Part shown: positions 93-567 of the stretch, piece after piece
Position numbering within the stretch: the stretch's first letter is position 1
Layout of the letters: every line of letters starts with the position of its first letter
Assembly: GCA_020625875.1 (NCBI GenBank)
Contig: JAHLAX010000033.1
Span: 1 to 64,000, forward strand
DNA length: 64,000 nucleotides
Reading direction: 5' to 3'
Source: a bacterium
Lineage (GTDB): Bacteria > Bacillota > Clostridia > Oscillospirales > Acutalibacteraceae
Position numbers and translations under genes: made by a program
The notes under the pieces: model-generated
Seen by the model: the letters and a program-made list of their open reading frames with translations, nothing else
What the model was told of the DNA's origin: nothing
Database searches by the model: none

Positions 93-293
93 TTATACAA
101 GATACAGTTCGTCGCCTATCGGCCAGAAATAATCAACCAATATATTATCAGTGGATTCACCGAATTCTTCCGCTTTAAATTTTTTTAAATCATTTATGGC
201 CGAATTGCATTCAGTGTCAGCCGATACCGAAACAACTGAAACAACAGAAAGCAGCATAGCAACCACGATCAACAGAGATGTAAACCTTTTCAT
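93..293 (-). CDS. small secreted protein (66 aa) with N-terminal signal peptide, unknown function
   Basis: ORF with RBS (AGGAGG) and hydrophobic signal peptide MKRFTSLLIVVAMLLSVVSVVSVSA. Confidence 0.6.
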   Translation of the reverse strand: MKRFTSLLIVVAMLLSVVSVVSVSADTECNSAINDLKKFKAEEFGESTDNILVDYFWPIGDELYLV

Positions 294-343
294 AACAAAA
301 CCTCCTAAAGAGATGTAAACCTTTTCATAACAAAACCTCCTAA
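274..343. repeat. 35-bp perfect tandem duplication covering RBS and start codon of the 93..293 ORF
   Basis: agagatgtaaaccttttcataacaaaacctcctaa at 274-308 and again at 309-343. Confidence 0.95.
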
Positions 344-348
344 ATCAA

Positions 349-382
349 TATATAAAAAATGCACAACACAAGCGTGTTGTGC
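349..382 (-). terminator. intrinsic terminator of candidate ncRNA
   Basis: minus strand GCACAACAC GCTT GTGTTGTGC ATTTTTT; 9-bp perfect stem followed by T-run. Confidence 0.8.
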
Positions 383-532
383 AATAAAACGCATAGCTCC
401 GATTGTGTTGCGGTACAATTTCAATACATGCTATAGCATTAGACAAGTATAGAGATACAGAGCATGCATTTTTACAAATTAAAAAGTAAAAACACATACA
501 TAGTCTAATGCTTTAATTTTGAATTATACCGC
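350..532 (-). ncRNA. candidate structured ncRNA (6S-like long hairpin architecture), identity unknown
   Basis: sigma-A promoter at 539-567 and terminator at 361-382; long-range pairing of arms 503-532 and 408-444, including perfect 10-bp AGCATTAGAC/GTCTAATGCT. Confidence 0.55.
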
Positions 533-538
533 ACAGAT

Positions 539-567
539 ATTATATCACAGCTATTTTTAAATTGCAA
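539..567 (-). promoter_or_regulatory. sigma-A-type promoter TTGCAA-17-TATAAT
   Basis: minus strand TTGCAATTTAAAAATAGCTGTGATATAAT, 17-bp spacer, located just after the lysA terminator. Confidence 0.75.

What the first reader, a model, noticed from the sequence alone, without database searches (positions are those of the whole stretch)
350..567. Independent ~180-nt structured ncRNA transcription unit downstream of lysA
On the minus strand, right after the lysA terminator (572-597), there is TTGCAA-17-TATAAT (562-567/539-544), then a non-coding stretch with two long complementary arms, then a strong terminator (361-382). The arms are GTGCGGTATAATTCAA (517-532) with TTGAAATTGTACCGCAACAC (408-427), and a perfect AGCATTAGAC/GTCTAATGCT 10-bp helix further in. 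An internal bubble separates the helices and an apical TTTTTAC/GTAAAAA hairpin sits on top. A closing stem, central bubble and upper stem recall 6S RNA, but I cannot assign a family. A riboswitch or attenuator controlling the small secreted ORF downstream is an alternative.
Basis: partly seen in the sequence, partly recalled or inferred. Interest (0 to 1): 0.62.

Follow-up and report, generated by a model that had tools for sequence, protein, structure and literature searches.

The report
New multicopy switch-like leader RNA
The stretch beside lysA is one copy of a large, previously uncatalogued family of folded RNAs in Clostridia that start at their own promoter, can refold between competing shapes ending in a stop signal, and usually sit just before a gene for a secreted or accessory protein, so they most likely act as on/off switches for those genes.

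Summary
In detail: promoter, long-range helices and terminator lie where stated, and the fold is far stronger than shuffled sequence (z = -6.8). It is not 6S: no Rfam family matches, and the genome has a real 6S RNA elsewhere. It belongs to an RNA family absent from Rfam 15. A covariance model finds it in 96 of 161 genomes of the genus (up to 15 copies each), in many families of the order and class, and in no sampled genome outside the class. Base-paired positions covary massively. Nearly every copy starts 4 nt after an extended -10 promoter and ends in a terminator; most are followed within about 60 nt by a ribosome site and start codon, mainly of secreted or surface proteins. Two further pairings covary: the hairpin's 3' strand with a segment after the outer stem (1:2), and that segment with the terminator's 5' arm (2:3). 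Mutually exclusive 1:2, 2:3 and terminator helices are the hallmark of transcription attenuation. The window copy looks half-decayed: weak 2:3 pairing and a truncated downstream gene.

The parts
539..567 (-). Promoter: TTGCAA (567-562), 17-nt spacer, extended -10 TGATATAAT with TATAAT at 544-539
   Evidence: in the family 137 of 159 copies have TTG + 16-18 nt + extended -10, against 30 of 3180 shuffled, and 4 nt separate the -10 from the RNA in 126 of 137
354..534 (-). The leader RNA, about 180 nt, from outer stem to terminator
   Evidence: R1 match 386-534 at 144.4 bits, R2 match 96.7 bits
519..533 (-). P1 5' strand (outer closing stem)
   Evidence: pairs with 409-424; P1 96.6% and 95.0% paired with double changes in nearly all pairs
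409..424 (-). P1 3' strand
495..512 (-). P2 5' strand (P2a 512-503, P2b 501-495)
   Evidence: P2 sequence is almost free while pairing is kept (92-93% paired, 18-19 of 19 pairs with double changes)
435..451 (-). P2 3' strand (P2b 451-445, P2a 444-435)
486..494 (-). P3 5' strand UGUUUUUAC; resembles segment 2 and competes with it for segment 1
   Evidence: the A tract it pairs with is nearly invariant
459..474 (-). Segment 1: UAAAAAUGCAUGCUCU, P3 3' strand plus the bulge that pairs with segment 2
   Evidence: 1:2 pairing 96-97% kept with compensatory changes
386..400 (-). Segment 2: GGAGCUAUGCGUUUU
354..383 (-). Intrinsic terminator (hairpin 383-360, U-tract 359-354); its 5' arm is segment 3
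   Evidence: a terminator follows in 149 of 157 copies
93..293 (-). Downstream signal-peptide ORF, 66 aa, truncated relative of the 281-aa protein that follows the RNA in L010/L011
275..344 (-). 35-bp tandem duplication carrying ribosome site and start codon; the first copy stops after 7 codons
   Evidence: read directly

Best explanation
This is one copy of an undescribed family of cis-acting leader RNAs (riboswitch-like transcription attenuators) of Clostridia. Transcription starts at the base of P1. The RNA folds P1, P2 and P3. Segment 1 (P3 3' strand plus the GCUC bulge) can instead pair with segment 2, just after P1, first as a GCUC/GAGC pseudoknot and then by strand invasion of P3. Segment 2 can also pair with the terminator's 5' arm as an antiterminator. 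Inferred switch: if the 1:2 fold is stabilised by an unknown input, segment 2 is taken away, the terminator forms and the downstream gene is off; if not, the 2:3 hairpin, which emerges first, blocks the terminator and the gene is read. Shown: family, structure, covariation of P1, P2, P3, 1:2 and 2:3, promoter, terminator, gene order. Inferred: regulation itself, its direction and the existence of a ligand. Unknown: the input.
For: Covariation: 94.9% of cells paired and 736 double-change cells against 202 in shuffles on 85 sequences; 94.6%, 682 against 200, on 78 sequences from a second, mostly new set of loci. 1:2 helix: 96-97% paired with compensatory changes, GC to AU in 20 sequences at one pair of each alignment. 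Matched duplex energies beat swapped ones for 1:2 (-15.5 vs -13.7, sd 0.17) and 2:3 (-18.1 vs -15.3, sd 0.22), 0 of 2000 permutations, while the control 1:3 shows nothing (-7.32 vs -7.34). Terminator in 149 of 157. Next long ORF co-directional 126 to 17 downstream against 99 to 46 upstream; start codons cluster 45-60 nt after segment 2 (77 of 136).
Against: Tandem copies each carry their own promoter and terminator, so the upstream ones cannot simply be leaders of an adjacent ORF. Some copies have no ORF close by. Few conserved unpaired bases mark an obvious ligand pocket. In the window copy the 2:3 pairing is weak (11th weakest of 157). No transcript or binding data exist. Permutation and shuffle tests do not correct for relatedness.
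Confidence: 0.78

Rival explanations
1. Independent small RNA genes acting in trans (for example binding a protein or base-pairing with mRNAs), each ending at its terminator; the neighbouring ORF is incidental or read only by leak-through.
For: Nearly every copy has its own promoter and terminator, tandem arrays exist, and some copies lack a nearby ORF.
Against: The preferred short spacing to a ribosome site and start codon, the co-directional bias, and the covarying antiterminator are not expected of a free-standing sRNA.
Confidence: 0.14
2. A processive antitermination element (like EAR or put RNA) that modifies RNA polymerase so that it reads its own terminator and later ones.
For: Cis position, pseudoknotted structure, and many long downstream genes.
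Against: Alternative pairings with the adjacent terminator already explain readthrough; nothing in Rfam matches.
Confidence: 0.04
3. A 6S RNA or second 6S paralogue.
For: Long hairpin with internal loops and about 180 nt length; read from sequence and fold only.
Against: No RF00013 match; a true 6S exists in the same genome and is not matched by this family's model; up to 15 copies per genome.
Confidence: 0.01
4. A DNA-level repeat or mobile element (MITE-like inverted repeats or an integration site) with RNA structure only as a by-product.
For: Multicopy, and serine-recombinase elements sit in the terminator loop of several copies.
Against: G-U pairs are tolerated, the inner helix varies almost freely while pairing is kept, and only one strand carries the conserved promoter and terminator.
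Confidence: 0.03

Closest known systems
Terminator-type riboswitches as a kind (for example SAM-I, c-di-GMP-II)
   Same: 5' leader of mRNAs; structured, pseudoknotted domain; mutually exclusive antiterminator and terminator; several copies per genome controlling dispersed genes.
   Different: No match to any Rfam family; no identified ligand; the switching strand lies inside the apical hairpin of the upstream domain rather than in P1.
c-di-GMP riboswitches (GEMM-I RF01051, c-di-GMP-II RF01786)
   Same: Many copies per genome and a regulon rich in surface proteins in Clostridia (own knowledge for the known families).
   Different: Different fold; no Rfam match; RNA-rich complete genomes such as G217 (15 copies) and G156 lack any GGDEF domain.
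6S RNA (RF00013)
   Same: Similar length and a long irregular hairpin with a closing stem.
   Different: 6S is a separate gene in this genome; this family is multicopy, pseudoknotted and followed by genes.
EAR / put processive antitermination RNAs
   Same: Cis-acting structured RNA near the 5' end of long transcription units (own knowledge).
   Different: Those do not rely on pairing with an adjacent own terminator (own knowledge); no Rfam match here.

Membership tests
6S RNA (RF00013) | Match to the 6S covariance model | tested here: not met
   no match in window or relatives; true 6S at G000:C141:128273-128463, 58.7 bits
6S RNA (RF00013) | One or two genes per genome, free-standing | tested here: not met
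   three copies in the own genome, up to 15 per genome in the genus, mostly ahead of a gene
6S RNA (RF00013) | Binds RNA polymerase holoenzyme as a promoter mimic | not testable with these tools
   needs biochemistry
Riboswitch / transcription attenuator (functional kind) | Located in the 5' leader of an mRNA | tested here: met
   start codon mostly 45-60 nt after segment 2, co-directional; readthrough transcript itself not shown
Riboswitch / transcription attenuator (functional kind) | Conserved structured domain | tested here: met
Riboswitch / transcription attenuator (functional kind) | Expression platform with mutually exclusive helices | tested here: met
   1:2, 2:3 and terminator compete; first two covary; terminator in 149 of 157
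Riboswitch / transcription attenuator (functional kind) | Direct binding of a small ligand that changes expression | not testable with these tools
   no ligand known; in-line probing needed
c-di-GMP riboswitch | Match to RF01051/RF01786 and host makes c-di-GMP | tested here: not met
   no Rfam match; no GGDEF in several RNA-rich genomes
Any family in Rfam 15 | Score above gathering threshold | tested here: not met
   window, 18 and 20 further loci: only one unrelated tRNA; permissive scans give only chance-level hits

The most novel reading that the evidence does not exclude
A new riboswitch class of Clostridia that senses a small molecule, perhaps a signalling nucleotide other than c-di-GMP, and through up to 15 or more copies per genome controls a regulon of surface, secreted and accessory proteins, using strand invasion of its own apical hairpin as the switch.
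Probability: 0.4. Interest if true: 0.92.

Novelty: new variant of a known kind. Interest (0 to 1): 0.8.

Why it matters
An RNA class present in dozens of families of Clostridia (many from gut and rumen samples), often in several copies per genome, with very strong covariation, is missing from Rfam 15. It defines a shared regulon of surface and secreted proteins (BspA-type leucine-rich repeats, CHAP and M23 peptidases, lectins, dockerin proteins) and small regulators, so finding its input would show how these bacteria control their cell surface. The covarying three-helix switch also gives a direct, testable mechanism.

Tried and rejected
6S family membership. Known Rfam family hidden below threshold (only chance-level hits to unrelated families). 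Phage origin: a pattern of the core found nothing in viral contigs. c-di-GMP as general input: several RNA-rich genomes have no GGDEF domain. MITE or inverted-repeat element. A U-A-U triple helix between the U tracts and P3: the downstream strand runs antiparallel to the A tract, which fits Watson-Crick strand exchange, not a Hoogsteen third strand. Blast-level hits L024, L026, L027, L030, L031, L033 were judged spurious: L027, L031 and L033 lack the structure, and L024, L026 and L030 match only at the query's 5' end. Literature searches found no description of such an element, but paywalled papers are not held.

Full report
The observation. The 183-nt strand folds at -59.6 kcal/mol, against -35.6 (sd 3.6) for shuffles (z -6.8). 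Single-site scans for promoter and terminator do not beat chance, so comparative evidence was needed.

Known families. Rfam 15 gives no match in the whole window, only chance-level hits at a permissive threshold, and nothing relevant in 38 homologous loci. The same genome has an ordinary 6S RNA at contig C141:128273-128463 (58.7 bits), which the new family's model does not match.

A family. Blastn finds relatives in the genus. A covariance model R1, built from five sequences with structure P1/P2/P3, finds the RNA in 96 of 161 genomes of the genus, up to 15 per genome and with tandem copies about 230 bp apart. A second model R2 finds it in 96 of 300 genomes of the family sample (52 of 135 genera), 124 of 394 of the order sample and 74 of 291 of the class sample, including families outside the order. 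In 349 genomes drawn across the phylum only the window's own genome matches, which is also a good specificity control. Copy numbers in multi-genome scans are lower bounds, because only 8-19 candidates per genome were scored; the own genome, scored with 150 candidates, has three copies: C141:386-534 (this one), C120:5470-5607 and C176:12018-12146. Named records with the core pattern are Ruminococcus sp., Ruminococcaceae, Oscillospiraceae, Eubacterium sp. and unclassified Clostridia metagenome-assembled genomes, some of them from rumen, cecum or colon. No viral contig matched the pattern.

Structure. On 85 distinct sequences 94.9% of pair cells are standard, with 736 double-change cells against 202 in shuffles, and slid controls collapse. 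On a second set of 78 sequences, mostly new loci (a few repeat members of the first set), the result is the same (94.6%, 682 against 200). Relatedness is not removed by these controls, and the alignments were fitted to the structure, which favours it; but the inner helix P2 has all pair types at nearly every position while remaining paired, which inheritance alone would not give.

Competing pairings. The P3 3' strand and following bulge (segment 1, UAAAAAYRCAKGCUCU) are complementary to a conserved segment right after P1 (segment 2, GGAGCUAUGYGUUUUU). Counted on the two alignments, this helix is paired in 96.0% and 96.7% of cells with compensatory changes; read directly, examples are GCUC/GAGC, GCUU/AAGC (L074), ACUC/GAGU (L068:2515) and CCUC/GAGG (L076). 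Segment 1 therefore covaries with two partners that exclude each other over the A tract. Segment 2 in turn pairs with the terminator's 5' arm (segment 3), up to about 15 bp, for example AAACGGAGCUAUGUG with the arm ending UUCCGUUU in L114 and L118. Matched duplex energies exceed swapped ones for 1:2 (-15.5 vs -13.7) and 2:3 (-18.1 vs -15.3), 0 of 2000 permutations each, while the control 1:3 shows no effect.

Ends and neighbours. TTG plus 16-18 nt plus an extended -10 precedes 137 of 159 copies (30 of 3180 shuffled), and the -10 lies 4 nt before the model start in 126 of those 137. A terminator follows in 149 of 157. An RBS-preceded start codon lies 45-60 nt after segment 2 in 77 of 136 copies with a downstream ORF. 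The next long ORF is co-directional in 126 against 17; several of the 17 have a small sense ORF in between or a mobile element inserted in the terminator. Upstream the ratio is 99 to 46. Of 103 downstream proteins 25 hold BspA-type LRR_5 repeats; others hold HTH_3-type regulators, CHAP, M23, lectin, dockerin, Cu_amine_oxidN1, zinc-ribbon and YpsA domains. By a crude rule, 61 of 95 close ORFs have a signal-peptide-like start.

Mechanism. The simplest account is transcription attenuation with three mutually exclusive helices. Because 2:3 is complete before the terminator's 3' arm is made, I infer readthrough as default and termination when the 1:2 fold is stabilised; the direction is a guess. 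Conserved unpaired bases are few, so the input could be a small molecule, a protein or another RNA. c-di-GMP is unlikely in general, since several RNA-rich genomes, including G217 and G156 at 100% completeness, have no GGDEF domain.

The window copy. Its 2:3 pairing is the 11th weakest of 157. Its downstream gene carries a 35-bp tandem duplication (344-310/309-275) whose first start codon reaches a stop after seven codons, and the remaining 66-aa ORF is homologous only to the first ~57 residues of the 281-aa protein in the same lysA context in L010/L011. So this is a genuine but probably decaying member; L205 or L118 would be better bench subjects.

Novelty. It is not in Rfam 15 and no description turned up in the open-access library; paywalled reports cannot be excluded. 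The kind (attenuating leader RNA) is known; the family, its switch geometry and its input are new.

Noticed in passing
L140, L175, L180, L086, probably L132; L149 (G239 contig end): Mobile elements interrupt this RNA's terminator hairpin loop at about GTAGCTTC; L140, L175 and L086 encode large serine recombinases (Recombinase, Zn_ribbon_recom and DUF4368 domains). The conserved terminator may serve as an integration site.
   Followed up: partly
window 275-344 (-): 35-bp tandem duplication of ribosome site and start codon in front of a truncated secreted-protein gene.
   Followed up: yes
G217:C1:151851-152455, G217:C15:14868-15483, L076, L032, L167, L168: Tandem arrays of two or three diverged copies of the RNA, each with its own promoter and terminator.
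   Followed up: partly
L205 (C176:12018-12146) and L168, L173, L182: Very small proteins of unknown function directly downstream of some copies.
   Followed up: no
L035: A copy whose 3' half is replaced by coding sequence, leaving promoter, P1 5' strand and P3 only.
   Followed up: no
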